Shown: positions 11,952 through 33,978 of the stretch, piece by piece
Numbering within the stretch: position 1 is the stretch's first letter
Layout: each line of letters starts with the position of its first letter
Assembly: GCF_035917275.1 (NCBI RefSeq)
Contig: NZ_CP108508.1
Location: forward strand, 5,642,001 to 5,706,000
DNA length: 64,000 nt
Direction: 5' to 3'
From: Streptomyces sp. NBC_01237
GTDB lineage: Bacteria > Actinomycetota > Actinomycetes > Streptomycetales > Streptomycetaceae
Made by a program: the position numbers and the translations under genes
Notes under the pieces: generated by a model
Seen by the model: the letters and a program-made list of their open reading frames with translations, nothing else
The model's database searches: none
Told to the model about the DNA's origin: nothing

Positions 11952-12024
11952 TCTGACCCATGGTGGCGCCTCAGTTCGACAGTTGGAGTCCTCTCATCGT
12001 TCCGGCCCGGCCCAACAGGCCCTG

Positions 12025-12040
12025 TGACAGCCCTGTGACA
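12025..12040 (+). promoter_or_regulatory. AfsQ1-type binding box
   Basis: GTGAC, six bases, GTGAC: an exact fit to the published AfsQ1 consensus GTnAC-N6-GTnAC. It sits between afsQ1 and sigQ, as expected for AfsQ1 control of both transcripts. Confidence 0.75.
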
Positions 12041-12123
12041 GTCGCAGGACAACGTGATGAAACTGGCCGGGCAAGCTCGTTGGCACATGGAACGAACGGA
12101 CTCCACCGATGAGGGGGCGCGAG

Positions 12124-17769: not shown

Positions 17770-17788
17770 GGTCACCAGATGAGCATAT

Positions 17789-17800
17789 CTACGCGCGTAG
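17789..17800. promoter_or_regulatory. palindromic operator upstream of deoC
   Basis: CTACGCGCGTAG, identical to the sites before add and the purine nucleoside phosphorylase gene; 20 nt upstream of the deoC start. Confidence 0.7.
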
Positions 17801-17906
17801 CGACCTGTACAGGGGACCCGGCCGACCGTGCGTATTCGCCGAGCGGCGTGCGCCGGGCGCACGGCCGCCCCGTCGTCGTGGGCTCCGGTCAGGCAGAATC
17901 GGCCCT

Positions 17907-18969: not shown

Positions 18970-19359
18970 ATGACGCGTACGGATGGTGCTGATGGTGCCG
19001 GCAGAGCGGAAGCGGTACGGGCACGATGTCGGATCGACATCGACACGGACGGGGGATACGGCTGGCGGATGATCGCGCAGAACGGGCGCGTGGTCGCGGT
19101 GTCCGCCCATGCGTTCGGCGCGTACGGCGACTGCCGTCGCGCCTTCGACGAACTGCGCGAGAGCCACCGGGGCCAGACCGGTGCTGTCCAGCACACGCCC
19201 TCGGGCAACGGCTGGATCTGGCTGCTGAGGGAAGCGGACGGCCGCGCCACGGCCGTCTCCGCACGGGCGTACGAACGGCATTCGACCTGCCGGGCCGCCT
19301 ACGAACGGTTCCGCGCGCTCCTCGCCGAGATGGGGGACGTCACCGGAAGTTGCCTTTAG
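18970..19359 (+). CDS. small DUF1508 (YegP-like) protein
   Basis: 129 residues with two related halves: WRMIAQNGRVVAVSAHAFGA ... CRRAFDELRE and WIWLLREADGRATAVSARAY ... CRAAYERFRALL. This internal duplication, a polar strand with NG followed by a Y/F-x-x-x-x-x-C segment, is the pattern of DUF1508 proteins of the YegP type. Function unknown; cytoplasmic, no signal peptide. It lies just ahead of the Pst-like cluster but is separated from it by about 60 nt with no clear link. Confidence 0.75.
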   Translation: MTRTDGADGAGRAEAVRARCRIDIDTDGGYGWRMIAQNGRVVAVSAHAFGAYGDCRRAFDELRESHRGQTGAVQHTPSGNGWIWLLREADGRATAVSARAYERHSTCRAAYERFRALLAEMGDVTGSCL

Positions 19360-19420
19360 GGCACACCTCATTCACATCTCGGGGCGCACGGGTTCATCGC
19401 GTCCCGCGAGCGTCGGCCGC

Positions 19421-20473
19421 GTGATGACACGAACAAAGGAGCGACCCCCGCCCGCCGGGACACGCACCGGCGCACCGGACGAGCCCGGCGCCGTATCCGA
19501 AGTGCCCCGGCGGCTGTACGCGGACCCCGGGCTGCCCGACCGGGTGTTCCGCGCGGTGGCCCGGAGCGGCGGGGGCTTCGTGCTGGCCGTGATGCTCCTG
19601 GTCGGCGGATTCCTCCTCTACCGGGCCTGGCAGGCGCTCGAACGGGCCGGCTGGGCGTTCCTCACGACCCAGGCGTGGGAACCGGACGCCGGACGGTTCG
19701 GCATCGCCGCGGTGCTCATCGGCACGGTGCTCATCGCGCTGACCGCGATCACCGTGGCGGTTCCGCTCGCCATCGGCGGCGCCCTCTACATCTCCGAGTA
19801 CGCGCCGCCGCGGCTGCGCCGGACCCTGATCAGCGTCGTCGACCTGATGGCCGCCGTGCCCTCCGTGGTCTACGGGCTGTGGGGGCTCTTCTTCTTCGAG
19901 GGCGCCGTCCTGCCCACCGCCCGCTGGATCGCCGCCTACTTCGGGTGGTTCCCGCTCTTCACGGTCGACGGGGCCGACCCCCGCGACCCGCTCGCCCCCG
20001 AGACCGTCTACACCTCCTCCACCCTGATCGCGGGCATCGTGGTCGCCCTGATGGTGGCGCCCATCATCTGCTCGGTGATGCGCGAGGTGTTCTCGCAGGC
20101 ACCCGCCGGGGAGCGCGAGGGCGCGTACGCCCTGGGCGCCACCCGCTGGGGCATGATCCGCAGCGTCGTCCTGCCCTTCGGCAAGGGCGGCATGATCGGC
20201 GGCACGATGCTCGGGCTCGGCCGGGCGCTCGGCGAGACCATCGCCGTCTACCTGATCATCTCGCCCGTCTTCGAGATCCAGTGGCATGTGCTGCAGAACG
20301 GCACCAGCTCGGTCGCCGCGCTGATCGCCCTGCGCTACGGCGAGGCCAGCCCGTTCGGCATGTCCGCGCTGATGGCCGCCGGTCTCGCGCTCTTCCTCAT
20401 GACCCTCGTCGTCAACTTCGCCGCCTCGTCGATCGTCGCCCGCAGCCGCTCCGGCGCCTCCAGCGACGCCTAG
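19421..20473 (+). CDS. PstC-like ABC transporter permease of an extended Pst-type cluster
   Basis: 350 residues. After a ~40-residue Pro/Arg-rich cytoplasmic tail there are six hydrophobic segments (about 47-70, 88-115, 125-150, 200-225, 255-280, 310-335). The EAA loop that contacts the ATPase is clear: EREGAYALGATRWGMIRSVV, then LPFGKGGMIGG. LMAAVPSVVYGLWGLFFFEG is typical of PstC. It is the first gene of a + strand cluster ending with a PstB-type ATPase ~10 kb downstream. GTG at 19421 and ATG at 19424 are both possible. Expected role: channel half for phosphate or a related oxyanion. Confidence 0.88.
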   Translation: MMTRTKERPPPAGTRTGAPDEPGAVSEVPRRLYADPGLPDRVFRAVARSGGGFVLAVMLLVGGFLLYRAWQALERAGWAFLTTQAWEPDAGRFGIAAVLIGTVLIALTAITVAVPLAIGGALYISEYAPPRLRRTLISVVDLMAAVPSVVYGLWGLFFFEGAVLPTARWIAAYFGWFPLFTVDGADPRDPLAPETVYTSSTLIAGIVVALMVAPIICSVMREVFSQAPAGEREGAYALGATRWGMIRSVVLPFGKGGMIGGTMLGLGRALGETIAVYLIISPVFEIQWHVLQNGTSSVAALIALRYGEASPFGMSALMAAGLALFLMTLVVNFAASSIVARSRSGASSDA

Positions 20474-20490
20474 AAGGGTGCCCGCCCGTC

Positions 20491-21957
20491 ATGACACTCG
20501 CACCCGAACCGCCGCGGACCGTAGGCGGGTTCGCGTCCGCGTCCTCGTCCGCGTCCTCGTCCTCGCCGAAGGACGTCCCGGAAGCCGCCCGGGATCACGT
20601 CGCCCAGGATCACGTCGCCCCGGACCACGTCGCCCCGGACCACGGAGCCCCGGCCGCGTCGCGCACCGTGCTGCCCGCCCGCACCGCTGAACGGCAGCGG
20701 ACGGGCGGCGAGGTCCGGCGCTCCCTGAAGCTGACCCGCCCCTCGGACACCTTCGCCCTGGCCGGTGCGGCTGCCGCGGCGCTGAGCGTGACCGCACTGC
20801 TCTTCGTCCGCCTGCTGCCGTTCAACGGCGCCGTGGGCTTCGTCTTCGTCGCGTACGTGCTCTTCCTCGGGCTGTACGCGCTGCTGGTCTCGTTCGACGA
20901 GGACGGGCCGGCGATCAGGGACCGGCTGGCGGGCATCGTCGTACGCAGCATGGGACTGGTCATGCTCGTCGCGCTGGCCTTCGTGATCGTCTTCACGCTC
21001 TGGGAAGGCCGCAAGGCGCTGCCCCACGGCAACTTCTTCACCCAGGACATGAAGCTCGCGGGCCCGCTGGACGGCCTCGGTGTCGGCGGCATCCTGCACG
21101 CCATCGTCGGCACGCTCCAGCAGATCACCCTCGCGCTCCTGGTCACCGTCCCGACCGGGCTGGTCTGCGCGGTGTTCCTCAACGAGGTCCCGGGCCGCTT
21201 CGCCCGCTTCGTCCGCACCATCGTCGAGGCGATGACCGCGCTGCCCTCGATCGTCGCCGGTCTGTTCATCTACGCGACCGTCATCCTCGCCGTCGGCTTC
21301 GACAAGTCCGGGCTCGCCGCCTCCCTCGCCCTGGCCGTGATGATGCTGCCGATCATCATCAGGGCCTCGGACGTCGTCATCCGCCTGGTGCCCGGCACGC
21401 TGCGCGAAGCCTCCTACGCGCTGGGGACCTCGCGCTGGCGCACCGTCTGGCACGTCGTGCTGCCCACCGCCCGGTCCGGGCTGACCACGTCGGTCATCCT
21501 CGGCACCGCCCGCGGGGTGGGCGAGACATCGCCGGTGCTGCTCACCGCGGGCTTCACGGCCGAGCTGAACGCCGATCCGCTGTCCGGGCCGCAGGTCTCG
21601 CTGCCGCTGGCCACCTTCGAGTTCGTCAAGTCGCCCGAGCCCGACATGATCGCCCGCGGCTTCGGCACCGCGGCGACGCTCATGGCGCTGGTGCTGCTCC
21701 TCTTCGTGATCGCCCGGCTCATCGGCGGCCGCGATCCGGGGCAGCTGACGAAGGCCCAGACCCATCGGCGGGTCCTCGCCTCGCGCCGCGACTCCGCCCG
21801 CTTCACGGCCCGTACCGGGGCCCGCGCCGCGGCTGGTTCCCCGGCCGGTGCCGAAGGCCGTGCCGAAGCCCGTTCCGCAGCCGGTGAGGCCACCCGTACG
21901 ACACCGTCGGGCACCCCGTCCGGCGGCGCCACCACCACACCCGGGAGTACCCCGTGA
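20491..21957 (+). CDS. PstA-like ABC transporter permease with long terminal extensions
   Basis: 488 residues; ordinary PstA is ~280-300. Residues 1-85 are a Ser/Ala-rich tail that includes four 5-residue repeats of the DHVAP type. Two extra hydrophobic segments follow (about 90-140), then the PstA core with MTALPSIVAGLFIYATV and the EAA loop EASYALGTSRWRTVWHVVLP. The last ~60 residues are again Ala/Gly/Thr-rich. The stop overlaps the next start by 4 nt (GTGA). Partner of the PstC-like protein. Confidence 0.87.
   Translation: MTLAPEPPRTVGGFASASSSASSSSPKDVPEAARDHVAQDHVAPDHVAPDHGAPAASRTVLPARTAERQRTGGEVRRSLKLTRPSDTFALAGAAAAALSVTALLFVRLLPFNGAVGFVFVAYVLFLGLYALLVSFDEDGPAIRDRLAGIVVRSMGLVMLVALAFVIVFTLWEGRKALPHGNFFTQDMKLAGPLDGLGVGGILHAIVGTLQQITLALLVTVPTGLVCAVFLNEVPGRFARFVRTIVEAMTALPSIVAGLFIYATVILAVGFDKSGLAASLALAVMMLPIIIRASDVVIRLVPGTLREASYALGTSRWRTVWHVVLPTARSGLTTSVILGTARGVGETSPVLLTAGFTAELNADPLSGPQVSLPLATFEFVKSPEPDMIARGFGTAATLMALVLLLFVIARLIGGRDPGQLTKAQTHRRVLASRRDSARFTARTGARAAAGSPAGAEGRAEARSAAGEATRTTPSGTPSGGATTTPGSTP
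20593..20652 (+). repeat. four 15-bp in-frame repeats in the PstA-like gene
   Basis: Unit GAYCACGTCGCCCCG, four tandem copies encoding DHVAQ-DHVAP-DHVAP-DHGAP in the N-terminal tail. Confidence 0.8.
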
Positions 21958-23687
21958 GACCCGCGACCGTGTCCCGTCTGGCCATGGGGCTGGCCGCGCT
22001 GCTCTGCGCGCTGCTGGCCACCGGTCAGCCGCCCGCCCTGGCGGCCTCGTACAGCAAGATCACCGGCGCCGGCTCCACCTGGAGCTCCAACGCGCTGGAC
22101 CAGTGGCGCCGCAATGTCGCCTCCAACCTCGGGATGACCGTCAACTTCGCGGCCACCGGCTCGTCCAACGGCCGTGAGCAGTTCAAGAACGGCACGGTCG
22201 ACTTCGGCGTCTCGGAGATTCCGTACGGGCTCAAGGAGGGCGGCGTCACGGACGTGCCGCCGAAGCGCGGCTACGCGTACATGCCGATCGTGGCCGGTGG
22301 CACCGCGTTCATGTACAACCTCAGGATCGGTGGCAAGCGGGTCACCAACCTGCGGCTGTCCGGCGACGTCCTGGCCAAGATCTTCACCTCGCGGATCACC
22401 CGGTGGAACGCGCCCGAGATCAGGGCGGACAACCCGGGCCTGAACCTGCCGAGCCGCCAGATCGTGCCCGTCGTACGCTCCGACGGTTCCGGCACCACGG
22501 CGCAGTTCACCACCTGGCTGGCCAAGGAGCAGGGCGCGACCTGGAACGACTTCTGCCGACGGGCCGGGAAGTCCACGCCCTGCGGCATGACGTCGTACTT
22601 CCCCAGCGCCTCGGGCTCCTCCCAGATCGCCAAGTCCGGTTCGCTGGGCGTCTCCGGCTATGTGCGGCAGAACCACGCCGAGGGCGCCATCACCTACGTC
22701 GAGTACTCGTACGCCATCAAGACCGGCTTCCCGGTCGCCAAGATGCTCAACCGGGCCGGGTACTACGTGGAACCGACCGCCTCCAGCGTCGCCGTGGGGC
22801 TGATGGCGGCACGGATCAACAACGACAAGGGGTCCTCCGACTACCTGACGCAGATCCTCGACGGGGTCTACCGCTCGGGCGACCGGCGTACCTACCCGCT
22901 GTCCAGCTACAGCTACATGATCGTGCCGACCTCGCTGGACGGCGAGAAGAACCCCATGACGGAGGCGAAGGGCAGGACCCTCGGCGCCTTCGCCAACTAC
23001 TTCCTCTGCGACGGCCAGCAGCAGGCGGAGGAGCTCGGCTACTCACCGCTGCCCAAGAACCTGGTGCTCGCGGGATTCGACCAGGTACGGCGGATCCCCG
23101 GCGCCCCCACCGGCAAGGTCGACATCAACGGCTGCCGCAACCCCACCTTCTCCAAGGACGGCGGCAACACCCTCGCCAAGAACGCGCCGTACCCGAAGGC
23201 GTGCGACCAGCGGGGCCCGCAGCAGTGCTCCAACGGCACCGCCGGAGCCAAGAACGAGCAGACCCCGGTGAAGCCCGCGGCGCAGGGCTCCAACGGCGGT
23301 TCCGGAAACGGCGGTTCGGGCGGCGGAGGCGCGGGTGGCACCGGCGGTTCCGGCGGGGCGACCGGCTCCGGCGGCACGGGAAGCGCCGGTACGACGGGCG
23401 GTGCCGACAGCGACGGTGACGGCACTCCGGACGCCCAGGAGGCCGCCGCGGGCGGGGGAGGCGCGATCGACCCCGACACCGGCGAACCGATCGACGACGG
23501 CGGCTCCGGCTCCGGTGACGCCTCGGTCGTCGCCAACCCCGTCAATCTCGCGTCCGACGACGCGGTGGGGCTGCGCGGTGCCCTGATGGCGCTGTCCGCC
23601 CTGCTGCTCGCCGGTGTGGTCGTCGGCCCGCCGCTCACCGCCCGCGCGCTCGCCGCGCGGTCCCGCCGCAAGGGAGACCTGTCGTGA
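21954..23687 (+). CDS. membrane-anchored PstS-like phosphate-binding protein with Ca-type loop
   Basis: 577 residues. Signal peptide (1-31), then a PstS-type domain to about 400: ITGAGSTWSSNAL at the mature N-terminus, FAATGSSNGREQF, and VVRSDGSGTTAQF, the residues that hold phosphate in PstS. A long Gly/Ser linker follows (440-490), then ADSDGDGTPDAQEAA, a DxDxDGxxD calcium-loop like thrombospondin type 3 repeats, and a C-terminal membrane segment (about 545-567) with a basic end. So it is tethered by the C-terminus, not by a lipobox as usual for Gram-positive PstS. Coupled to its neighbours by GTGA overlaps on both sides. Confidence 0.85.
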   Translation: MRPATVSRLAMGLAALLCALLATGQPPALAASYSKITGAGSTWSSNALDQWRRNVASNLGMTVNFAATGSSNGREQFKNGTVDFGVSEIPYGLKEGGVTDVPPKRGYAYMPIVAGGTAFMYNLRIGGKRVTNLRLSGDVLAKIFTSRITRWNAPEIRADNPGLNLPSRQIVPVVRSDGSGTTAQFTTWLAKEQGATWNDFCRRAGKSTPCGMTSYFPSASGSSQIAKSGSLGVSGYVRQNHAEGAITYVEYSYAIKTGFPVAKMLNRAGYYVEPTASSVAVGLMAARINNDKGSSDYLTQILDGVYRSGDRRTYPLSSYSYMIVPTSLDGEKNPMTEAKGRTLGAFANYFLCDGQQQAEELGYSPLPKNLVLAGFDQVRRIPGAPTGKVDINGCRNPTFSKDGGNTLAKNAPYPKACDQRGPQQCSNGTAGAKNEQTPVKPAAQGSNGGSGNGGSGGGGAGGTGGSGGATGSGGTGSAGTTGGADSDGDGTPDAQEAAAGGGGAIDPDTGEPIDDGGSGSGDASVVANPVNLASDDAVGLRGALMALSALLLAGVVVGPPLTARALAARSRRKGDLS

Positions 23688-26230
23688 GACCCCCGCGTGC
23701 CCGTGTCCGCCCCGGGAGACGTACGGCCGCCGGTGCCGGAGCGCTCCTCGCCGCCGTACTGCTCGCCCTGGTCCCGCTGCCGAGCGGCGCCGACCAGGCG
23801 CGGGCGGCCCAGGCGGCGACCACGGAACAGACGGCACAGACGGCCAGGACGGCATCCACGGCGTCCACGGCGTCCACGGCGCGGGCGGCTTCCGCGGGCC
23901 GTGCGGCGGACGCCGGATCGGCGGTCACCAGGAGCGGTACCAAGGGGCCCTACGACGACTTCTCCGGCCTCAGGGTGACCGTCCACCAGACCGAGCACCT
24001 GCGGGCCCAGGGTGTGAAGGTGACCTGGACCGGCGGGAGGCCGACCCCGCTGGGCGGAAAGTTCGTCAACTACCTCCAGATCATGCAGTGCTGGGGCGAC
24101 AGCTCCGGCGGCCCCGACCGGGAGAGCTGTGACTTCGGGGCGGTCAGGGCCGGGGGGAGCTACAACGGGAGCCGGGTGCTGCCCGAGGGATGGGACCCGC
24201 AGGAGTCCGAATACACGCAGGGCGAAGGCAACTTCAGCCCCTTCGTGCCGTTCCGGCCCGTCACGGGCAAGCCCACCGAGGACGCCTACGACTTCACGTA
24301 CTTCGGCCCGAACGACTCGAACGCGGAACCCCTGCGCAAGACCCAGCCGGACGGCACCGGCGAGGCGATCTTCGAGGTGCAGACCGCACTCCAGGCCCCC
24401 CACCTGGGCTGCGGCGAAGTGAACGGCAGCGGCGGGAAACCGCGCTCGTGCTGGCTGGTCGTGGTGCCGCGCGGCGAGCACGAGACCGAGGCGCCGGCCA
24501 ACGGCAACCTGGACACCTCCCCGCTGAGCCGGTCGAACTGGGACCGCCGGATGGTCTTCCCGCTGCGGTTCGATCCGGTCGGCGCGACCTGCGACCCGGA
24601 CCGGCCGGAGCGCCGCATCATCGGCTCCGAACTGCTCACCGACGCCGTCTCGTCGTGGCAGACCGTCCTGTGCGACGGCCTGGACGCCCGCTTCACCTTC
24701 AGCCAGTCGGGCGAGGACCACGCCCGCTCCCTGATCCGCAACCCCTCCGCCACCTCGCCCGGGATGGCCGTCACGGTCGACCCCGTCGAGACGGCCGAAG
24801 GCGCCCCGCCGGTCGTGCACGCCCCCCTCGCGGTGAGCGGGCTGAGCGTGGGATTCCTCTGGGAGCACGCGGGGGCGCCGAACGAGTGGGTGCGCGATCT
24901 GCGGCTCAGTCCACGGCTGCTGGCCAAGATGCTGACCCAGTCCTATGTCGCGGGCGTCAGTCTCTGGAGCGTCGACAGCCCGAAGCCGCCGCATCTGGCG
25001 GGGAATCCCGAAGCGCTGGTCAGCGATCCTGAATTCGTGGAGCTCAACCCCGCCATGGCGGGCCGAGCGGCTCGCAGCGGTCCGCTCGGAATGGTCGCAC
25101 CGAGCGAGAACTCCGATACGAGCCGACTGCTGTGGCGCTATCTTCAGTCCGACCGGGACGCCCGCGAATTCCTTTCCGGAAAACCCGATCCCTGGGGAAT
25201 GAAACTCAATCCCTTCTACCGGGACATGGCGCTCGACAAAGAGGCGCCGGACTACTTCCCGAAAGCGGACCCGACGGAGACCAGGGCCTCCGCGGGACCC
25301 ACGGAGTGGGCCGTCTACACCGGTGCCGAGATCGTGCCGTACGCCGAGAACCTGCACGACGGTGCGCTGCGCGTGCGCCGCGGGTACAGCGGTCAGACGA
25401 CGAACTTCGAGGTCTGCGCCGAGTGCGCCACGGGCGGCAAGCTGACCGGGGAGCGCAGCCCGCAGGGCATGCGCCAGGTGGCCGGACTGGTCGACGCCCC
25501 GTCGGCCGACCGCTATCAGCTGGACATCGCGGCCCTGCCGAACGCCGACGGTGAGTTCGTCGTGCCCACCGAGAAGTCCCTGCTCGCGGCCGTCGCGCAG
25601 ATGAAGGACTCGGCCGTGGCCGGGGTGAAGGCGCCCGATCCGGCACGGGCGAGGAACGGCGCGTATCCGCTGACGGCGGTCGCCTACGCCGCCGCCACCA
25701 CGGACCAGCCCGCCGCCGCCCGCCGGGACTACGCGCGGATGATCCGGTACGCGGCCGGGCCGGGCCAGACAGCGGGCCTCACCCCCGGACAGCTGCCGCA
25801 CGGGTACGCCCCCCTGCCCGCGGCGATGCGCGCACAGGCGAGGGACGCGGCGGGCCTGCTGGAACGCGGCGCCGGGACCCCGCCCGGCGCCGGCACGCCG
25901 GGTGGCGGCCGGAGCGCAGGACCGGGCGGCGACGGCACCGCGGGCGGACCGGCATCCGGTGCGGACTCCGGCGGTACGGGGGGCGGCACGGCGGCCGGTG
26001 GCGGCTCGGCGGGCGGCCCCGGCCCCGACGGGTCGCCGGGGACCGCGGCGGGCGCCGACGACACGTCGAAGGTGGCCGCGACCGCGTCCGGCGCACCGAC
26101 CCCCTCGCAGGTCCTCGGGCTGATCCGGTGGGTGCTGCTGGGGGTGCTGATCGCGGGCGGCGCGGCGGCGCTGGCGGGCCCGGTGATGATGCGGCTGTCG
26201 ACCCGGAGGGCGGCGGCCGGCTCCGGCTGA
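23684..26230 (+). CDS. large membrane-anchored extracellular protein with PstS-like features
   Basis: 848 residues. Signal peptide (about 15-42), a Thr/Ala-rich stretch with TAS repeats, and a ~650-residue extracellular part with several cysteines (MQCWGDSSGG; LGCGEVNG; RSCWLVVVP; VCAECATGG). Segments such as LAVSGLSVGFLWEHAGAP, LLAKMLTQSYVAGVSLWS and YPLTAVAYAAATTD recall the binding-protein fold seen in the preceding gene, but the match is distant. A Gly-rich linker (about 725-800) leads to a C-terminal membrane segment (about 815-838). Coupled by GTGA overlap to the upstream gene. Function unknown; probably part of the receptor complex. Confidence 0.75.
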   Translation: MRPPRARVRPGRRTAAGAGALLAAVLLALVPLPSGADQARAAQAATTEQTAQTARTASTASTASTARAASAGRAADAGSAVTRSGTKGPYDDFSGLRVTVHQTEHLRAQGVKVTWTGGRPTPLGGKFVNYLQIMQCWGDSSGGPDRESCDFGAVRAGGSYNGSRVLPEGWDPQESEYTQGEGNFSPFVPFRPVTGKPTEDAYDFTYFGPNDSNAEPLRKTQPDGTGEAIFEVQTALQAPHLGCGEVNGSGGKPRSCWLVVVPRGEHETEAPANGNLDTSPLSRSNWDRRMVFPLRFDPVGATCDPDRPERRIIGSELLTDAVSSWQTVLCDGLDARFTFSQSGEDHARSLIRNPSATSPGMAVTVDPVETAEGAPPVVHAPLAVSGLSVGFLWEHAGAPNEWVRDLRLSPRLLAKMLTQSYVAGVSLWSVDSPKPPHLAGNPEALVSDPEFVELNPAMAGRAARSGPLGMVAPSENSDTSRLLWRYLQSDRDAREFLSGKPDPWGMKLNPFYRDMALDKEAPDYFPKADPTETRASAGPTEWAVYTGAEIVPYAENLHDGALRVRRGYSGQTTNFEVCAECATGGKLTGERSPQGMRQVAGLVDAPSADRYQLDIAALPNADGEFVVPTEKSLLAAVAQMKDSAVAGVKAPDPARARNGAYPLTAVAYAAATTDQPAAARRDYARMIRYAAGPGQTAGLTPGQLPHGYAPLPAAMRAQARDAAGLLERGAGTPPGAGTPGGGRSAGPGGDGTAGGPASGADSGGTGGGTAAGGGSAGGPGPDGSPGTAAGADDTSKVAATASGAPTPSQVLGLIRWVLLGVLIAGGAAALAGPVMMRLSTRRAAAGSG

Positions 26231-26519
26231 GTCCTCGGCCGGCGTCCTTCGGCCCACGTCTTCCGGCCCGGTGCGATTCCCCGGATTTCCCCGGATTCCC
26301 CGCCCGGTGAATCCGGGGAATCGTGCTGGTCTCCGGGGAATTCTCTTGGTGTCGCCCAGTAAATCCATACGTAACCTGATCAGCAATTGGATTTGGTGGC
26401 CGGGGGGACCGCTCTGCGGAATTGTTTGCGGTGGCCGGCCGACGGGTCGGCGGTAACAGAATCCGGATTGTACTTGCGCGTCCATTCCTTGCATTCCGTA
26501 TCCACGGAGGAGAACAGAA
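26231..26519. other. 289-nt gap inside the Pst-like cluster, with hairpin and promoter-like region
   Basis: The left half holds repeated CCCCGGATT units and a strong hairpin (separate entry). The right half is clearly less GC-rich (AATCCATACGTAACCTGATCA; GAATCCGGATTGTACTTGCG) and ends in a perfect GGAGGAG ribosome site. A second transcription start for the three following genes is likely. Confidence 0.55.
26275..26322 (+). terminator. hairpin between the two halves of the Pst-like cluster
   Basis: GATTCCCCGGATT (26275-26287) and AATCCGGGGAATC (26310-26322) form a perfect 13-bp stem with a 22-nt loop. Extra copies of CCCCGGATT inside the loop and CCGGGGAAT just downstream allow alternative pairings, so it could act as an attenuator as well as a terminator. 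No T run follows. Confidence 0.6.
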
Positions 26520-27440
26520 GTGAACGTCAAGACTCGTGTTCGTCTGGGTGCCGCTGTCGGCGCCGCCGCCCTCGGCCTCGGCATCATGGCCCCCGTCGCC
26601 TCCGCCGACCCGGCCACCCCGACCGACTACCGCGTCCTCGCCGGTGCCGGCTCGGACACGACGCAGGACGTGGTCAACGGTCTCGGTGAGTCCATCGACG
26701 GCGGCACGCTGATCGCCTCGTACGACGCGACCGGTTCGAGCACGGTCAAGACCCGGGCGGCCAACTGCACCCTCACCCGTCCGAACGGTTCCTCGGCCGG
26801 CATCAACGCCCTCAACAGCAGCATCGACGGCGCCACCGGCTGTCTGGACTTCGCCCGCTCCTCGCGCGGACCGGCCGCCGCCGGCACCGACCTGACCTGG
26901 ATCCCGTTCGCGCAGGACCGGGTGACCGTCGCCGTCCGCGGGGACAGCCCGCTCAACGCGAACCTGAACCTCACCACCGCCCAGCTCAAGTCCATCTACG
27001 AGTGCACGCTGACCTCGCTCAACGGTGTCTCGCTGACCCCGCTGCTGCCGCAGGCCGGTTCCGGGACGCTCACCTTCTTCCTCGGCGAGATCGGCAACCC
27101 CGTCGTGGGTGCCTGTGTCGGCACGATGCAGGAGCACAACGGCGTGCAGCTCGACACCGCGGGCGACATCGCCCCGTACTCCGTATCCCAGTACAACGCC
27201 CAGGTCAGCGGCGCGGTCAACGACCGGCACGGTGCCACCGTGCTCGGCAAGGTCAACGGCGGCGCGTTCAGCCGCGACGTCTACAACGTCGTCCCGACCG
27301 CGAAGCTCAACGACGCGACCATCGACGCCACGTTCACCGGCTCCGACTCCAAGGTCTGCGCCGAGACCGACGTCATCGAGTTCTACGGCTTCACCACCAT
27401 CGCCAACTGCGGCGCGACCGTCCTCAAGGGTGAGCGCTGA
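26520..27440 (+). CDS. secreted soluble PstS-like substrate-binding protein
   Basis: 306 residues. Signal peptide (1-30, GIMAPVASA end), then a binding-protein domain: YRVLAGAGSDTTQDVVNGL, LIASYDATGSSTV, DFARSSRGPAAAG and TWIPFAQDRVTVAVRG follow the order of PstS segments, with AGAGS and the RSSRG loop near the ligand site, but the RSDGSGTT loop is not conserved. There are no lipobox, membrane anchor or sorting signal, so it should be released or held by partners. It has its own near-perfect ribosome site (GGAGGAGAACAGAA then GTG) and probably its own promoter. Ligand unknown; a phosphate-like anion is the simplest guess. Confidence 0.82.
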   Translation: MNVKTRVRLGAAVGAAALGLGIMAPVASADPATPTDYRVLAGAGSDTTQDVVNGLGESIDGGTLIASYDATGSSTVKTRAANCTLTRPNGSSAGINALNSSIDGATGCLDFARSSRGPAAAGTDLTWIPFAQDRVTVAVRGDSPLNANLNLTTAQLKSIYECTLTSLNGVSLTPLLPQAGSGTLTFFLGEIGNPVVGACVGTMQEHNGVQLDTAGDIAPYSVSQYNAQVSGAVNDRHGATVLGKVNGGAFSRDVYNVVPTAKLNDATIDATFTGSDSKVCAETDVIEFYGFTTIANCGATVLKGER

Positions 27441-27467
27441 TCATCGCCACCCCGTAACCGTGCGACA

Positions 27468-27493
27468 GCCGGGCACCCATCGGGGTGCCCGGC
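27468..27493 (+). terminator. hairpin after the soluble binding protein
   Basis: 11-bp perfect stem GCCGGGCACCC / GGGTGCCCGGC, 4-nt loop, 28 nt after the stop codon. No T run; may be a partial terminator or an mRNA-stabilising element. Confidence 0.65.
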
Positions 27494-27540
27494 CCCACGG
27501 CGTACCCGAAGTCCACCACCACCCCCTGGGGAGAAACGCG

Positions 27541-29022
27541 ATGAATCGCCTCGCACCACGCAGATCGCCCGCGGCGCTGCTGTTCGGATCACCCGTGGCG
27601 CTGCTCGGCGTCTGCGCGCTGCTGTGCGGTCTGGCGGCCGCCGTTCTGGGTCTGTCCACCGAGGCGCACGCCGCGTCGGCACGGATCGGGACGTTCACCC
27701 TGGAGCCCGCAGCCGGGAGCATCAAGGACGCCCAGCTCGCCACCTCGGCCACCACGGACGCCGCCTGCCCGGCCCCCGCCGATCCGCAGGCGCCCTACGT
27801 CAGGGCCGGGCTCCGCCTGCCCAAGCCGGCCGCCGCGACCGGGGGGCTGGCCTCGTACGCCCTCACCACCTCGGCCGCGGGTGCGCCGCTCGACTCCGGG
27901 CCCTTCACCGCCGCGCTCCCCGCCGGGGCCTCGCTGGAGAGCGTCCTGCGCAAGTACGTCAAGACCGGTCCGCTGGACGGCACCTACGAGATCCGGCTGC
28001 ACTGCGACACGGCGACGAGCGTGGGCGCCTTCGACCACTTCTCGGCGAGCGTCCGGGTCACCGGCGAGAACTGGGCCCTGGTCCGGGCGCAGGCGACCAC
28101 GATGGAGCTGACCGGGCCCGCCACGGCGGCCGGCGCGCCGCTGAAGCTGACGGCGGCCCTCACCCCGGCAGCGGCGGCGGGCCGGGTGAGCTTCGGCGCC
28201 GGAACGTCCGCCGCCGGCCCGTTCACCGAGGCAGGAGCGGCGGAGCTGACCGGGGGCAAGGCCGAACTGACCGTCACCGCACCGGCGAAGCCCGGCCTCG
28301 CCTACTACAGCGCCACCTTCACCCCCACGGACCCGGAGGCGTTCAGCGGTACGTCGGACCTCCTGGCCGTGACCGTCACGGACGCGGCGCCGAGTCCCGA
28401 CCCGAGCGCCACCGACCCCACCGGCAAGCCCACGGACGGCCCCACCGAGCCCGCGGACCTCGATGTCACCGACGCCGACGGGAAGCCGCTCGACGCCAAC
28501 CCCGCCCTCGAAGCCGGCCAGAAGGTCCTGGTCACCGCCCGCGGCTACACCAAGGGCGCCACGGTGAAGGTGGCCCTCGCCGACAGCGGGGCCACACTCG
28601 CGGACGCGACCGCCGACGCCGAAGGCACCGTCGACGCGTACGCGTTCACCGTCCCCGCCGGGATCGAGGACGGCGACCACACGCTCACCCTCGCCGAGGA
28701 CAAGGCCGACGGGCACAGCGTCGTCTTCGCCTTCGTCACCGGCGAGCAGCCGAGCCCCACCCCCGACCCGAGCGACACCGCGGGCACCGACGACGGCGGT
28801 ACGACCTCCGGCGGCACGGGCGGTGACGCGGGTGACGCGGCGGGCGCCGCGGGCGGCGGCTCGGGCGGTTCCGGCGGACAGTCCGCCGGCCCCCTCGCCT
28901 CGACCGGCGGCGAGGCGGGCGCGATCGGCCTCGCCGCCGCCGCGCTGATCAGCCTCGGGGCGGCGATCGTGATCCACGTCCGCCGCAGGGGCCTGCTCAC
29001 GTTCGGCCGCCCGGCGCACTGA
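27541..29022 (+). CDS. Ig-like repeat surface protein with LAxTG sorting signal
   Basis: 493 residues. Signal peptide (about 12-44), a ~150-residue N-terminal domain, an Ig-like beta domain (about 185-280: MELTGPATAAGAPLKLTAAL ... TFTPTDPEAFSGTSDLLAVTV), a Pro/Asp/Thr linker and a second beta domain (about 300-400). A Gly/Ser/Thr-rich stalk ends in PLASTGGEAG, a 20-residue hydrophobic segment and RRRGLL: a cell-wall sorting signal of the LAxTG kind used by class E sortases. It sits directly before a sortase-fold gene. Likely displayed on the wall next to the transporter; what it binds is not visible. Confidence 0.82.
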   Translation: MNRLAPRRSPAALLFGSPVALLGVCALLCGLAAAVLGLSTEAHAASARIGTFTLEPAAGSIKDAQLATSATTDAACPAPADPQAPYVRAGLRLPKPAAATGGLASYALTTSAAGAPLDSGPFTAALPAGASLESVLRKYVKTGPLDGTYEIRLHCDTATSVGAFDHFSASVRVTGENWALVRAQATTMELTGPATAAGAPLKLTAALTPAAAAGRVSFGAGTSAAGPFTEAGAAELTGGKAELTVTAPAKPGLAYYSATFTPTDPEAFSGTSDLLAVTVTDAAPSPDPSATDPTGKPTDGPTEPADLDVTDADGKPLDANPALEAGQKVLVTARGYTKGATVKVALADSGATLADATADAEGTVDAYAFTVPAGIEDGDHTLTLAEDKADGHSVVFAFVTGEQPSPTPDPSDTAGTDDGGTTSGGTGGDAGDAAGAAGGGSGGSGGQSAGPLASTGGEAGAIGLAAAALISLGAAIVIHVRRRGLLTFGRPAH

Positions 29023-29136
29023 CCCACCGGGCCATCCCGGCGCACCGACCCACCGGGCCTCCGGAGGCGGGCCGTCACCCCGCCTCCGGACCCCGGGCAC
29101 CGCCACCACCCCTCCGCAGCCAGGAGCGCAGCCACC

Positions 29137-30117
29137 GTGACCGTGCTGACCCCGCCACCGCCCCCGCCCCCGCCACCGTCCACGGTGACGGCACCTCACG
29201 CCCCGGCGCCGGCCGCGCCCCTCGCCCCCGCCCCCGCTCCCACCTCCCCGCCCCCCGCGCCGGCCGCCGCCCGTCCGGGCCTCGCGCTGGCCGGGGCGGC
29301 CCTGTGCGTCCTGGCCGCCGTACTCCTCGGCTTCACCGCGAACCTGACGCTCGTCGGCCACCTCCAGCACTCCCGGGACCAGCAGACCGCCTACGACGAA
29401 CTGCGCAGGCAACTCGCCCTGGGCACCGCCCCCGTGGGGCAGCGCACCTACGACGGAAAACCCCTCGCGGCGGGCGCCCCGATGGCGCTCCTGCGCATCC
29501 CCGCGCTCGGCCTGCGGGAGGTCGTCGGCGAGGGCACCACGTCCGGGGTGCTGATGTCCGGGCCCGGCCACCGCCGCGACACCCCGCTGCCCGGCCAGGC
29601 GGGCACCTCCGTGGTCATGGGCCGCCAGTGGGGGTACGGCAGCCCCTTCCACGGTCTGCACAGGCTTCCCGTCGGAGCGAGCATCGAGGTCACCACCGGC
29701 CAGACGAAGGCGGTGTACCGGGTCACCGGCGTCCGCCGACCCGGCGACGGTCTGCCCGCCCGGCTCGGCCGGGACCAGGGCCGGCTCACCCTCATCACCG
29801 CGACCGGCGGCCCCTACACACCCGCGGGCGTCCTGCGCGTCGACGCCGCGCTCACCACCCCCGTACAGCCGCATCCGCCCCGCGAGGCGCGCAGCGGCTG
29901 GATCAGCCCGGCCGAGGAGGCCCTTGCGGGCGAGAACGGTGCCTGGCTCACCGTCTTCCTCTGGTCGCAGGCGCTGCTGGCGGCCGCGCTGCTCGCCACC
30001 TGGGCGCTGCGGGTCTGGGGCGTCTGGCAGACGTGGATCACAGCGGTCCCGGTGCTCGGCGCCCTGGGGATCGCGCTCGCCTCGGCCGCCACCCGTCTGC
30101 TTCCCAACCTGCTCTGA
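29137..30117 (+). CDS. sortase-fold protein without catalytic His and Cys (pseudosortase)
   Basis: 326 residues. Pro-rich N-terminus, membrane segment (about 48-72), a sortase-like beta domain (about 110-245), and two C-terminal membrane segments (about 268-290, 297-320). The domain follows class E/F sortases: MALLRIPALGLREVV, GHRRDTPLPGQAGTSVVMG, YGSPFHGLHRLPVGA. Where active sortases have AGH before the substrate loop this has MGR, and TLVTC is TLITA (GRLTLITATGG), so both catalytic His and Cys are gone. It could hold or present the LAxTG protein before it instead of cleaving it. GTG start after CAGGAGCG. Confidence 0.82.
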   Translation: MTVLTPPPPPPPPPSTVTAPHAPAPAAPLAPAPAPTSPPPAPAAARPGLALAGAALCVLAAVLLGFTANLTLVGHLQHSRDQQTAYDELRRQLALGTAPVGQRTYDGKPLAAGAPMALLRIPALGLREVVGEGTTSGVLMSGPGHRRDTPLPGQAGTSVVMGRQWGYGSPFHGLHRLPVGASIEVTTGQTKAVYRVTGVRRPGDGLPARLGRDQGRLTLITATGGPYTPAGVLRVDAALTTPVQPHPPREARSGWISPAEEALAGENGAWLTVFLWSQALLAAALLATWALRVWGVWQTWITAVPVLGALGIALASAATRLLPNLL

Positions 30118-30199
30118 GCCGCTACGAGCCGCCTTCGCACTGCACAGAGCCGCTACGAGCCGCCCTCGCACCGCACAGAGCCGCTGCGAGCCGCCGTCG
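30116..30199 (+). repeat. 31-bp tandem repeat, 2.7 copies
   Basis: Copies at 30116-30146 and 30147-30177 differ at two positions; a third, partial copy runs to 30199. Each carries paired GAGCCGCTACGAGCCGCC motifs. It fills most of the gap between the pseudosortase and ATPase genes. Confidence 0.75.
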
Positions 30200-30258
30200 G
30201 GCGGCCGTCGAACCGGCGCACACCGATCCGCCCCGAGAGCCGAGGAGTCACCCGTCCC

Positions 30259-31098
30259 ATGACCGACCTCATCGACACCGCCGTCCAGCCCCGCACGGTC
30301 ACCGGACCGGGCACCGCGCCCCTCGCCGCGACGCTCGAAGCGGACGCGATCTCCGCCTGGTTCGGCGACCACAAGGTCCTCGACCGGGTCTCGCTGACCA
30401 TGCCCGCACGTCAGGTGACCGCCCTCATCGGCCCCTCGGGCTGCGGTAAGTCGACCTTCCTGCGCATCCTGAACCGGATGCACGAACTGATCGGCTCGGC
30501 CTCGCTGGCGGGCCGGGTGCTCCTGGACGGCGAGGACATCTACGACCGGGGCCGTCGGATCACCCACGCCCGCCGCGAGATCGGCATGGTCTTCCAGAAG
30601 CCGAATCCGTTCCCCGCGATGTCCCTGTACGACAACGTCCTCGCGGGCCTGAAGCTGAACGGCATCAAGGTGTCCAGGGGCGGGCGCGACGACCTCGTGG
30701 AGGAGTGCCTCACCAAGGCGGGCCTGTGGAAGGAGGTCCGGGACCGGCTGCGCCAGCCCGGCGGCGCGCTCTCCGGCGGGCAGCAGCAACGCCTCTGCAT
30801 CGCCAGGTCGCTGGCGGTACGCCCCCGGGTCCTGCTGATGGACGAACCGTGCTCGGCCCTCGACCCGACCTCGACCCGGCGGATCGAGGAGACCGTCCAC
30901 GACCTCAAGGACGAGGTCACGATCGTCATCGTCACGCACAACATGCAGCAGGCGGCGCGGGTCTCCGACGGCTGCGCGTTCTTCCTCGCGGAACAGGGCA
31001 CCCCCGGGCTGATCGTCGAACACGGCCCGACCGAGGACATGTTCGGCTCCCCGCAGGACCCCCGGACCGCCGACTACGTCAACGGCCGCTTCGGATGA
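30259..31098 (+). CDS. PstB-like ABC transporter ATPase
   Basis: 279 residues. Walker A GPSGCGKST, Q-loop MVFQKPNPFPAMSLYDNV (typical of PstB), signature LSGGQQQRLCIARSLA, Walker B VLLMDEP and a switch His in IVTHNMQQA. The length, the Q-loop and the C-terminal VNGRFG match phosphate ATPases closely. Last gene of the cluster, separated from the permeases by four surface-protein genes; no phoU follows. It energises the permease pair at 19.4-22.0 kb. Confidence 0.9.
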   Translation: MTDLIDTAVQPRTVTGPGTAPLAATLEADAISAWFGDHKVLDRVSLTMPARQVTALIGPSGCGKSTFLRILNRMHELIGSASLAGRVLLDGEDIYDRGRRITHARREIGMVFQKPNPFPAMSLYDNVLAGLKLNGIKVSRGGRDDLVEECLTKAGLWKEVRDRLRQPGGALSGGQQQRLCIARSLAVRPRVLLMDEPCSALDPTSTRRIEETVHDLKDEVTIVIVTHNMQQAARVSDGCAFFLAEQGTPGLIVEHGPTEDMFGSPQDPRTADYVNGRFG

Positions 31099-31158: not shown

Positions 31159-32799
31159 TCAGATCCCGGCGGCCGCCGCCAGGTCCCGCTTGATCCCGGC
31201 GAGCAGTTCGGCGCCCCTGGCCCGCGCGGCGGGCAGCTCCCGCGCCGAGCCGACCGGCACCACGACCTCCAGGTAGCACTTGAGCTTCGGCTCGGTGCCG
31301 CTCGGGCGGACGATCACCCGGGCGCCCGTCAGGTGGTAGCGCAGCCCGTCGGTGGGCGGCAGCTGCCCGGTGCCCCGGGAGAGGTCCTCGGCCGAGGTGA
31401 CGGCGAGTCCGGCCAGCGCGGCCGGCGGACGCTCGCGCAGGCGCCGCATGGCGTCCGCGATGACCGACAGGTCCTCCACCCGGACGGACAGCTGGTCGGT
31501 GGCGTGCAGCCCGTGGGCGAGGGCGAGGTCGTCGAGGAGATCCAGGAGCGTACGCCCCTGTTCCTTGAGTACGGAGGCCAGTTCGGCGACGAGCAGGGCG
31601 GCCGTGATGCCGTCCTTGTCGCGCACGCCCTCGGGGTCGACGCAGTAGCCGAGCGCCTCCTCGTACCCGTACCGCAGTCCGTCGACGCGGGCGATCCACT
31701 TGAAGCCGGTCAGCGTCTCCTCGTAGCCGAGCCCCGCCTTCTCGGCGATCCGGCCGAGCAGCGAGGACGACACGATCGACTCGGCGAAGACACCCGTCGC
31801 GCCGCGGTCCACCAGATGGGCGGCGAGCAGCGCGCCGACCTCGTCGCCGCGCAGCATCCGCCAGCCGCCCTCGGCCGTCGGGTCCGGCACGGCGACGGCG
31901 CAGCGGTCGGCGTCGGGGTCGTTCGCGATGATCAGATCGGGGCCGGCCCGGCGTGCGGTCGCGAAGGCGAGATCCATCGCGCCGGGCTCTTCCGGGTTGG
32001 GGAAGGCGACGGTGGGGAACGCGGGGTCCGGCTCCGCCTGCTCGGCCACGAGCACCGGCTCGGGGAATCCGGCGCGGGCGAACGCGGCCGTCAGTACCGA
32101 GGTGCCGACGCCGTGCATCGCCGTGTACACGACCCGGGCGGTACGGGGGCTCCCGGCGCCGAGCACGCTGTCCGTCCGCGCGAGATAGGCGTCCAGCACC
32201 TCCTCGCCGAGCACGTCCCAGCCGGACTCCGGGCGGGGCACGCCGTCCAGCGGGCCGACCGCGTCGATCGCGGCGGCGATCTCGCCGTCGGCCGGGGGCA
32301 CGATCTGCGAGCCGTCGCCGAGATAGACCTTGTAGCCGTTGTCGCGCGGCGGGTTGTGGCTGGCGGTGACCTCGACCCCGGCGACGGCGCCCAGATGCCT
32401 TATGGCGTACGCCAGGACCGGGGTCGGCAGGGGCCGGGGGAGCACGGCGGCCCGCAGCCCGGCGCCGGTCATCACGGCCGCGGTGTCCCGGGCGAAGTCG
32501 GCCGACCTGTAGCGGGCGTCGTACCCGATGACGACGAGCCCGCCCTCCTGCCCCTGCGCCTTGAGGTGGGCGGCGAGGCCCGCCGCGGCGCGGATCACGA
32601 CGGACCGGTTCATCCGCATCGGCCCGGCCCCGATCTCGCCGCGCAGTCCGGCGGTGCCGAACTGGAGCGTGCCGGCGAAGCGTACGGCGAGCTCGTCGAG
32701 ATCCCCGGCGTCGATGAGCCGTCCGAGCTCGTCACGGGTCTCGGGGTCCGGGTCCTCGGCCAGCCAGGTCCTGGCCTGCGCGATGAGGTCGTGCTGCAC
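31159..32799 (-). CDS. phosphohexomutase / phosphopentomutase-type enzyme
   Basis: 546 residues, alpha-D-phosphohexomutase superfamily. N-terminal LQFGTAGLRGEIGAGPMRMN, active-site phosphoserine loop TASHNPPRDNGYKVY, metal loop DPDADRCAVAVPD and the sugar and phosphate loops (EEALGYCVDPEGVRDKDG; VRPSGTEPKLKCY) are all present. This long subtype is often annotated phosphomannomutase, but several members interconvert ribose 1- and 5-phosphate. Next to purine nucleoside phosphorylase that reaction would link the phosphorylase product to the pentose pathway and, for deoxyribose, to deoC. The GTG start has AGAGAGGCGG upstream. Confidence 0.88.
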   Translation of the reverse strand: MQHDLIAQARTWLAEDPDPETRDELGRLIDAGDLDELAVRFAGTLQFGTAGLRGEIGAGPMRMNRSVVIRAAAGLAAHLKAQGQEGGLVVIGYDARYRSADFARDTAAVMTGAGLRAAVLPRPLPTPVLAYAIRHLGAVAGVEVTASHNPPRDNGYKVYLGDGSQIVPPADGEIAAAIDAVGPLDGVPRPESGWDVLGEEVLDAYLARTDSVLGAGSPRTARVVYTAMHGVGTSVLTAAFARAGFPEPVLVAEQAEPDPAFPTVAFPNPEEPGAMDLAFATARRAGPDLIIANDPDADRCAVAVPDPTAEGGWRMLRGDEVGALLAAHLVDRGATGVFAESIVSSSLLGRIAEKAGLGYEETLTGFKWIARVDGLRYGYEEALGYCVDPEGVRDKDGITAALLVAELASVLKEQGRTLLDLLDDLALAHGLHATDQLSVRVEDLSVIADAMRRLRERPPAALAGLAVTSAEDLSRGTGQLPPTDGLRYHLTGARVIVRPSGTEPKLKCYLEVVVPVGSARELPAARARGAELLAGIKRDLAAAAGI

Positions 32800-33831: not shown

Positions 33832-33856
33832 GCGGATGAGCGTAACCGCTGATTCC

Positions 33857-33868
33857 CTACGCGCGTAG
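33857..33868. promoter_or_regulatory. palindromic operator upstream of purine nucleoside phosphorylase
   Basis: Third copy of CTACGCGCGTAG in the window, 25 nt upstream of the GTG start. Confidence 0.7.
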
Positions 33869-33978
33869 ATGCCCATGCGCAGAGTCTGCCCGGTCATGTT
33901 CGTACTTTCGTACGAAAATGGGCTGCCGGAAGGGTTCGGCGGGGTCCGACGGGGTGCGGAAGGCGGGCCGGCCGGGGC

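What the first reader, a model, noticed from the sequence alone, without database searches (positions are those of the whole stretch)
19421..31098. Extended Pst-type transporter cluster with three binding proteins, an Ig-like LAxTG protein and a dead sortase
A standard pst operon is pstS-C-A-B with phoU. Here the permease pair is followed by two C-terminally membrane-anchored binding-type proteins (one with phosphate-site residues and a calcium-type loop, one of 848 residues), a soluble secreted binding protein, a wall-sorted Ig-like protein, a sortase homologue lacking His and Cys, and finally the PstB-type ATPase. The one-strand order, GTGA coupling and short gaps argue that they form one system: a surface-displayed capture or sensing complex feeding (or signalling through) an ABC channel. 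I know of no described system of this composition; that is memory, not a search.
Basis: partly seen in the sequence, partly recalled or inferred. Interest (0 to 1): 0.88.

Follow-up and report, generated by a model that had tools for sequence, protein, structure and literature searches.

The report
Phosphate-type transporter with conserved dead sortase
Many actinobacteria carry a phosphate-uptake-type gene set to which a wall protein, a phosphate-binding protein that has lost its binding site and a sortase that has lost its catalytic residues have been added, which suggests that an enzyme fold was turned into a part of a nutrient transporter.

Summary
Eight same-strand genes (19421-31098) encode PstC, PstA, a membrane-tethered PstS (S1), a second tethered PstS-fold protein (S2), a secreted binding protein (S3), an LASTG wall protein, a sortase-fold protein and PstB. 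They form one conserved system: of 79 named loci found through S2, 72 keep the order as far as contigs reach and 7 differ by extra hits; of 37 regions found through the sortase-like gene, 29 hold S2. S2 rings in 26 of 30 genomes with that gene and 0 of 80 without. No catalytic His, Cys or Arg was seen in 66 aligned sortase-like proteins or in lettered cells of 103. S2 keeps the PstS fold but acidic residues replace phosphate ligands; S1 keeps its site. In a 1.5-Mb genome this is the only PstC-bearing system found, near phoU. Best reading: a phosphate importer with wall-linked accessory receptors; the pseudosortase is a non-catalytic membrane subunit, perhaps gripping a sorting-signal-like S1 tail (inferred). 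No description seen in the library searched. New variant of a known kind.

The parts
19359..19402 (+). operator-like element: four units at 11-nt spacing (GGGCACACCTC / ATTCACATCTC / GGGGCGCACGG / GTTCATCGCGT) just upstream of pstC
   Evidence: 50 aligned loci that have a hit: GTTCAC core with a conserved second unit exactly 22 nt downstream; [AG]TTCA[CT] near pstC in 45 of 77 loci versus 3.2 expected from shuffles; S. coelicolor PHO-box core GTTCACC (PMC4415409, passage). In this window alone the site is not significant.
19421..20473 (+). pstC, permease, 350 aa
   Evidence: TIGR02138 263 bits over cut-off
20491..21957 (+). pstA, permease, 488 aa
   Evidence: TIGR00974 over cut-off (scanned from 20518)
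21954..23687 (+). S1: PstS with long Gly-rich linker and C-terminal membrane anchor, 577 aa
   Evidence: TIGR00975 over cut-off; phosphate-site residues kept, Glu at the Asp56 position; C-terminal TM in 103 of 104
23532..23549 (+). S1 pre-membrane motif ANPVNL (family pattern [A/G]xPV[S/T/A][L/V])
   Evidence: P[VT]x[LVTAI] before the TM core in 83 of 103 tails, 12.4 expected from shuffles; 73 of 83 at 13-15 residues
23684..26230 (+). S2: N-terminal domain with conserved cysteines, degenerate PstS domain (residues about 307-733), C-terminal membrane anchor, 848 aa
26268..26329 (+). strong RNA hairpin between S2 and S3; possible processing or attenuation site
   Evidence: MFE -54.8 kcal/mol, z -4.3, 0 of 200 shuffles as stable; no Rfam match
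26520..27440 (+). S3: secreted soluble binding protein of PstS type, 306 aa, no C-terminal anchor
   Evidence: weak TIGR02136; profile match to S1 89% probability, E 2e-6; C-terminal TM in 0 of 104
27541..29022 (+). Ig-like wall protein with C-terminal LASTG signal, 493 aa
   Evidence: LAVTG/LPXTG anchor models and Ig-like models only below cut-off; LASTG + TM + Arg-rich tail
28894..28908 (+). LASTG sorting motif
   Evidence: direct reading of translation
29137..30117 (+). pseudosortase, 326 aa: N-terminal TM, sortase domain, two C-terminal TM helices
29623..29625 (+). codon of R163 at the catalytic His position
   Evidence: R in 66 of 66; R 95, K 4, gap 4 of 103; H in a class E sortase of the same genome
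29800..29802 (+). codon of A222 at the catalytic Cys position
   Evidence: no Cys in 66 of 66 or in any of 101 lettered cells
29830..29832 (+). codon of V232 at the catalytic Arg position
   Evidence: no Arg in 66 of 66 or in any of 100 lettered cells
30259..31098 (+). pstB, ATPase, 279 aa
   Evidence: TIGR00972 336.9 bits, cut-off 343.2

Best explanation
This is an accessory high-affinity phosphate importer of the Pst type whose receptor side has been rebuilt for a thick cell wall. Read from sequence and predicted structure: PstC, PstA and PstB form the ABC core; S1 is a PstS with a phosphate-type site, held by a C-terminal membrane helix on a long flexible linker; S2 is a second tethered PstS-fold protein whose anion site has been replaced by conserved acidic residues, so it should not bind phosphate; S3 is a free secreted PstS-like protein with conserved Arg/Ser/Thr site residues; the Ig protein carries an LASTG wall signal; the sortase-like protein has lost all three catalytic residues in every relative examined. 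Inferred: the Ig protein is fixed to the wall by a class E sortase encoded elsewhere in the genome and keeps S3 in the wall zone; S3 passes phosphate to S1, which docks on PstCA; S2 is a structural or regulatory dummy receptor; the pseudosortase is a permanent membrane subunit that binds the sorting-signal-like tail of S1 without cutting it and so holds the receptors at the permease.
For: One system: order kept in 72 of 79 named loci as far as contigs reach, 58 of 79 holding all seven members other than Ig; loci found by the pseudosortase alone carry S2 in 29 of 37, the other 8 having at most about 3.2 kb of contig upstream; S2 in 26 of 30 pseudosortase genomes and 0 of 80 others; pairwise-distance matrices agree (Spearman 0.79-0.95; pseudosortase-PstC 0.91). 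Phosphate: S1 over the PstS cut-off with site residues kept; S1 by sequence and S2 by fold match phosphate-binding proteins; 11-nt phased GTTCAC element upstream of pstC; in G137 (1.5 Mb, 97% complete) the only PstC found is in this system, near PhoU and a PhoR-like kinase. Dead sortase; fold intact. Class E sortase model over cut-off in 28 of the 30 genomes. S3-Ig link: 9 of 10 loci with long S3 have no separate Ig hit, and 6 of 9 long S3 scanned carry Big_3_5 domains. S1 tail motif.
Against: No transport, binding, expression or interaction data. S1 has Glu (93 of 102) where PstS has Asp56, so specificity could differ. The sortase-tail interaction is an inference from layout; 20 of 103 S1 tails lack the pattern. 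The operator-like element is not significant in this window alone, is absent from 32 of 77 loci by the pattern (among them Rhodoluna L073, Cellulomonas L074, Saccharothrix L076), and most loci showing it are related Streptomyces. Most of the 30 genomes also have another PstC, so this system may have a different job. LxxTG wall proteins were found in only 46 of 87 loci that hold S2, S3 and the pseudosortase, and 9 loci with a short S3 show no Ig hit at all (some are cut by contig ends). Only 2 of 16 same-genus genomes listed have the pseudosortase, so the system is dispensable.
Confidence: 0.55

Rival explanations
1. The transporter imports a different phosphorus compound (organophosphate, nucleotide, polyphosphate or wall-polymer fragment), or a different oxyanion, rather than free phosphate.
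For: S1 has Glu where PstS has Asp56 (93 of 102) and Trp where PstS has Phe11 (101 of 102); S3 has near-invariant Arg residues (R87, R113). Most of the genomes already have another PstC. In many Streptomyces loci deoC-like and phosphomannomutase/PNP-like genes flank the cluster (matches in 35, 32 and 29 of 79 named loci).
Against: In G137 the Glu-type S1 belongs to the only PstC-containing system found, near PhoU. S1 exceeds the curated PstS cut-off. The operator-like element resembles PHO boxes.
Confidence: 0.25
2. It is mainly a sensor: the core signals wall or phosphate state to PhoR/PhoU, and the dead PstS (S2) and dead sortase act as regulatory dummies rather than as parts of a capture relay.
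For: Two components have lost their canonical active sites but are conserved; the Pst system is placed in phosphate-signalling models with PhoU and PhoR (passage of PMC7866108); PhoU and a PhoR-like kinase lie near the system in L124.
Against: PstB and the permeases are the best-conserved members in the Streptomyces loci (88.6%, 82.8% and 79.0% mean identity), as expected of a working pump; S1 keeps its site. The own genome's only PhoU lies about 0.7 Mb away.
Confidence: 0.15
3. The pseudosortase is a chaperone or adaptor that hands the LAxTG wall protein to a class E sortase, and has no direct link to S1 or the permeases.
For: An Ig hit directly precedes the pseudosortase gene in 60 of 64 named loci that have it; sortase fold intact; class E sortase model over cut-off in 28 of 30 genomes.
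Against: The pseudosortase is present in 41 of 87 loci with no LxxTG protein detected, including loci with S3 fused to Ig domains; its distance matrix follows PstC and PstA most closely.
Confidence: 0.2

Closest known systems
PstSCAB phosphate ABC importer
   Same: PstC, PstA and a PstS (S1) over curated cut-offs, PstB just under
   Different: PstB is at the far end; S1 is held by a C-terminal helix (the ordinary PstS of this genome has a lipoprotein-type signal, my reading); adds a degenerate PstS, a free PstS-like protein, a wall protein and a pseudosortase; most of the 30 genomes also have another PstC
Class E sortase (SrtE; e.g. 5CUW, 5GO5)
   Same: fold and the GxGH region
   Different: His, Cys and Arg replaced in every relative examined; two extra C-terminal membrane helices; NF033747 score 68 against cut-off 160
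Isd haem uptake with sortase B (recalled; no call)
   Same: wall-anchored proteins plus an ABC importer and a sortase in one gene set; wall-to-membrane relay idea
   Different: there the sortase is active and the cargo is haem; here it is a pseudoenzyme and the receptors are PstS-like
Anchored-repeat ABC transporters of actinobacteria (TIGR03769-03773; recalled)
   Same: ABC transporter with surface-anchored proteins in actinobacteria
   Different: no such model among the listed hits of the seven non-ATPase proteins at E<=1; different transporter type as I recall it
WxL/WxLIP surface systems
   Same: weak WxL and WxLIP peptidoglycan-binding matches in the Amycolatopsis locus L058, below cut-off
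   Different: no such match in the window proteins; only a possible substitute for the wall protein

Membership tests
PstSCAB importer | PstC and PstA permeases over curated cut-offs | tested here: met
   TIGR02138 263 vs 196.45; TIGR00974 213.6 vs 193.45
PstSCAB importer | PstS over curated cut-off | tested here: met
   S1: TIGR00975 216.1 vs 205
PstSCAB importer | PstB over curated cut-off | tested here: inconclusive
   TIGR00972 336.9 vs 343.2, just below; the L124 relative passes, 344.5
PstSCAB importer | phosphate transport | not testable with these tools
   needs uptake or binding assays
PstS phosphate receptor (S2) | PstS fold | tested here: met
PstS phosphate receptor (S2) | phosphate-ligand residues (T10, S38, R135, G140 positions) | tested here: not met
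   E316 in 99 of 107, E/D344 in 102 of 107, D478 in 98 of 106, no Arg in 106 at the R135 position (positions placed through)
Sortase enzyme, class E | sortase fold | tested here: met
   Foldseek and VIA-align best matches of the predicted model are sortases
Sortase enzyme, class E | catalytic His, Cys, Arg | tested here: not met
   0 of 66 for each; none in lettered cells of 103 rows
Sortase enzyme, class E | NF033747 cut-off | tested here: not met
   68.3 vs 160 bits
Sortase-anchored wall protein (Ig) | C-terminal LAxTG, hydrophobic stretch, basic tail | tested here: met
   LASTG...VRRRG in the window; anchor models below their cut-offs
Pho regulon member | 11-nt direct repeats with GTTCACC-like core bound by PhoP | tested here: inconclusive
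   conserved phased element across loci; not significant in the window alone; binding untested

The most novel reading that the evidence does not exclude
A sortase fold has been recruited as a permanent, non-catalytic subunit of an ABC importer: it reads a sorting-signal-like tail on the receptor S1 (and perhaps on S2) and holds it uncut, while a dead PstS with an acidic pocket mimics a ligand-loaded receptor or binds a metal ion to gate the transporter. Together with wall-bound Ig and free S3 this would be a wall-spanning phosphate relay spread across the class Actinomycetes.
Probability: 0.33. Interest if true: 0.88.

Novelty: new variant of a known kind. Interest (0 to 1): 0.74.

Why it matters
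Sortases are known as enzymes; a sortase-fold family that has lost its catalytic residues in every relative examined and stays linked to a transporter would be a conserved pseudoenzyme with a testable new role. It would also give a concrete answer to how phosphate capture is organised across a thick Gram-positive wall, in antibiotic producers (where phosphate controls antibiotic synthesis) and in small-genome actinobacteria.

Tried and rejected
Chance neighbourhood or decaying genes: rejected. Order, co-occurrence and conservation of the altered positions do not fit.

Active sortase with misread residues: rejected by alignment with a class E sortase of the same genome (my pattern picked only one such sequence out of the two fetched stretches) and by the Arg/Lys at the His position.

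SCO1906 as a member of this cluster was my recollection. Papers list SCO1906 among phosphate-responsive exported proteins (passages), but I never showed that it is a homologue, so I dropped it. Planobispora multi-omics (passage): the part of the table that I saw lists the ordinary pst genes.

PHO box in the window alone: the two-unit score is reached by 19% of shuffles, and the pair pattern is at chance level in the window (6 matches, 7.5 expected). One type of minus-strand hit ('GGGCAACTTCCGTTCACC') is the reverse of a stretch that in the window lies at the 3' end of the upstream gene, so I gave it no weight. In one search, 45 of 77 loci hit and 32 did not; some hits (L003) lie inside the pstC reading frame. 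One search aligns only loci that have a hit (50 rows), so it shows the shape of the element and is not an independent test.

Ordinary sortases: 90 of 197 genomes matched at E<=1e-8, but many are partial hits. I kept the 30 genomes with a place at E<=6.2e-27. Of the other 167, 80 were tested for S2; the 87 not listed by the tool were not tested.

Rows without letters: four rows have a gap at the His column, two at the Cys column, three at the Arg column. Two of them (L097, L103) were misplaced by the alignment; both show Ala at the Cys position and Val at the Arg position on direct reading; their His position was not read.

Gene counts used a loose threshold that lets related families cross-match; I replaced them (bits over 60 or 100, best family per ORF).

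Folds of S3 and Ig were not predicted (two jobs only). The N-terminal S2 domain was not folded alone. I found no model coordinates in the Python box, so the geometry of the S2 acidic residues was not measured.

Naming the small-genome organism G137 failed: of 20 relatives of its S2, two carry a name, one of them 'Actinomycetales bacterium' (a MAG), the other 'hypothetical protein'.
Full report
WHAT IS THERE. The window lies in a 10.19-Mb genome (G000, contig C1 5642001-5706000). The listed relatives of S2 and of the sortase-like protein are mostly named Streptomyces (the best 120 of 485 and of 1159). Eight + strand genes run from 19421 to 31098. Two junctions overlap by GTGA; the remaining gaps are 17, 289, 100, 114 and 141 nt. 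Curated models identify PstC, PstA and PstS (S1) over their cut-offs and PstB just under it. S2 (848 aa) has only a partial PstS match, S3 a weak one, and the sortase-like protein matches PF04203.

ONE SYSTEM. An S2 alignment (A1) found 79 distinct named loci in the species genomes, the best 80 of 241 confirmed: Streptomyces, Wenjunlia, Actinacidiphila, Streptacidiphilus, Microtetraspora, Amycolatopsis, Saccharothrix, Actinocrispum, Longispora, Paractinoplanes, Actinoplanes, Hamadaea, Jiangella, Cellulomonas, Glaciihabitans, Rhodoluna and others. Profiles of the eight genes (built) find, in the 79 loci, pstC 77, pstA 74, S1 77, S2 79 (the seed), S3 77, Ig 73, sortase-like 64, pstB 64; 58 loci hold all seven members other than Ig. 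The order is kept in 72 of 79 as far as the stretch reaches; the other 7 differ by additional hits (an extra PstB-type ATPase upstream in L049, L051, L059 and L076, extra Ig hits in L048 and L060, part of a second copy in L004). The 15 loci without the sortase-like gene are all under 17 kb against about 22 kb for complete ones: in 13 the stretch ends within 300 nt of the last family hit; L065 and L069 have 1.3 and 2.3 kb left, still less than the distance to the sortase-like gene in related loci such as L070.

As S2 chose these loci, I also searched with the sortase-like alignment (A2) alone: in 197 genomes drawn from the class, 30 have a place at E<=6.2e-27, from 13 families; in the window's own genus 2 of the 16 genomes listed. 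Of the 37 regions fetched around these, 29 contain S2 and 24 contain PstC; the 8 without S2 have at most about 3.2 kb of contig upstream. Order varies in the distant ones: the sortase-like gene stands between S2 and S3 in L108, L110-L117, L119 and L121; S3 precedes S2 in L109; S2 precedes pstC in L105; L124 is divergent. The S2 profile (A3) rings in 26 of the 30 genomes and in 0 of 80 others tested. The four misses are three genomes of 78-86% completeness (G015, G060, G050) and G137, whose diverged S2 was found directly beside the sortase-like gene. Pairwise distances of the members agree (Spearman 0.79-0.95; sortase-like with PstC 0.91), which is also what common descent alone would give.

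WALL PART. The Ig protein ends in LASTG + membrane stretch + Arg tail. An LxxTG wall protein was found in 46 of 87 loci that have S2, S3 and the sortase-like gene; some Streptomyces (L008, L011, L021) have MAxTG instead, and Amycolatopsis L058 has Big_3_5 domains with weak WxL and WxLIP matches. S3 is longer than 480 aa in 10 of 104; 9 of these 10 loci have no separate Ig hit, but so do 9 loci with a short S3. Of 9 long S3 proteins scanned, 6 carry Big_3_5 Ig domains over cut-off. Such fusions suggest that S3 and the Ig part work together. A class E sortase model is over its cut-off in 28 of 30 genomes, so anchoring need not use the dead one; G017 and G137 are the exceptions.

A TAIL THAT LOOKS LIKE A SORTING SIGNAL. 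Before its membrane helix S1 has the pattern P[VT]x[LVTAI], usually [A/G]xPV[S/T/A][L/V], in 83 of 103 tails against 12.4 expected from shuffled tails, 73 of the 83 at 13-15 residues from the helix core, followed by the helix and an Arg-rich end. That is the layout of a sorting signal with another motif. I propose that the pseudosortase grips this tail without cutting it. This is inference.

PHOSPHATE. Near the start of pstC a GTTCAC core recurs with units phased at 11 nt (50 aligned loci that have a hit: G at -11 in 74%, at 0 in 94%, at +22 in 96%); [AG]TTCA[CT] occurs in 45 of 77 loci against 3.2 expected. It is seen outside Streptomyces too (Amycolatopsis L053, L058, L063; Paractinoplanes L061; Actinocrispum L062) but not in, for example, Rhodoluna L073, Cellulomonas L074 or Saccharothrix L076. 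The S. coelicolor PHO-box core is GTTCACC, with 11-nt repeat units (passages, PMC4415409; PMC7866108). The positive control, the ordinary pstS of this genome, has GTTCACCTTCCGTTCAC, reached by 0 of 300 shuffles. In the window alone the element is not significant (19% of shuffles). In G137 (1.5 Mb, 97% complete) the only PstC found lies in this system, with pstC-pstA-pstB-S1 divergent from S2-pseudosortase-S3 and with PhoU (over cut-off) and a PhoR-like kinase (below the PhoR cut-off) 1.4 and 2.2 kb beyond the S3 gene. Its S1 has Glu at the Asp56 position, so the Glu form serves the only Pst-type system found there. Three other genomes with a single PstC (G060, G140, G050) are incomplete. The window's genome has an ordinary Pst operon as well and one PhoU, at C1 4963179.

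LITERATURE. Eight searches touched the subject, in a library that lacks most subscription papers: searches (0 papers; 4; 4; 3; 8) listed all they found; others (8 of 817; 10 of 18; 8 of 295) only the top. I saw no title or abstract start describing this cluster or a natural sortase pseudoenzyme. The 2021 review of phosphate transport in Streptomyces has no occurrence of 'sortase'. [quoted passage not shown] I read passages only.

VERDICT. The cluster is real, conserved and, as far as I could search, undescribed. It is a variant of the Pst importer; the pseudosortase and the degenerate PstS are what make it unusual.

Noticed in passing
window 18970-19359 (+): Small protein with a near-threshold DUF1508 match (20.8 vs 22 bits), directly upstream of pstC; similar sequence in 51 of 79 named loci. 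It may belong to the neighbourhood in Streptomycetaceae.
   Followed up: partly
window 16822-17862 (-), 31159-32799 (-), 33007-33897 (-): Nucleoside-breakdown-type genes (deoC-like, phosphomannomutase-like, purine nucleoside phosphorylase-like, by my reading of the translations) flank the cluster; matches in 35, 32 and 29 of 79 named loci, so the place in Streptomyces looks old rather than a fresh insertion.
   Followed up: partly
window 26268-26329: Very stable hairpin between S2 and S3 without a clear T-run; may separate two transcription units.
   Followed up: partly
L124 (G137:C9), 10104-12233 (-): S2 of a small-genome actinobacterium carries a neocarzinostatin-family domain: a possible evolutionary relative of enediyne carrier proteins.
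   Followed up: partly
L058, 12967-17777 (+): Amycolatopsis version has a Big_3_5 protein with a weak WxL match and a weak WxLIP peptidoglycan-binding protein in place of the LAxTG protein.
   Followed up: partly
G059, G134, G045, G156, G013, G054: Each of these genomes has two S2 places and two regions with the system.
   Followed up: no
G079:C236 and G064:C14: The two PstC genes of each genome lie only about 17-19 kb apart.
   Followed up: no
S2 tails in the fetched loci: 7 of 107 S2 proteins match LxxTG near the C-terminus, so S2 itself may be wall-sorted in a few lineages.
   Followed up: no
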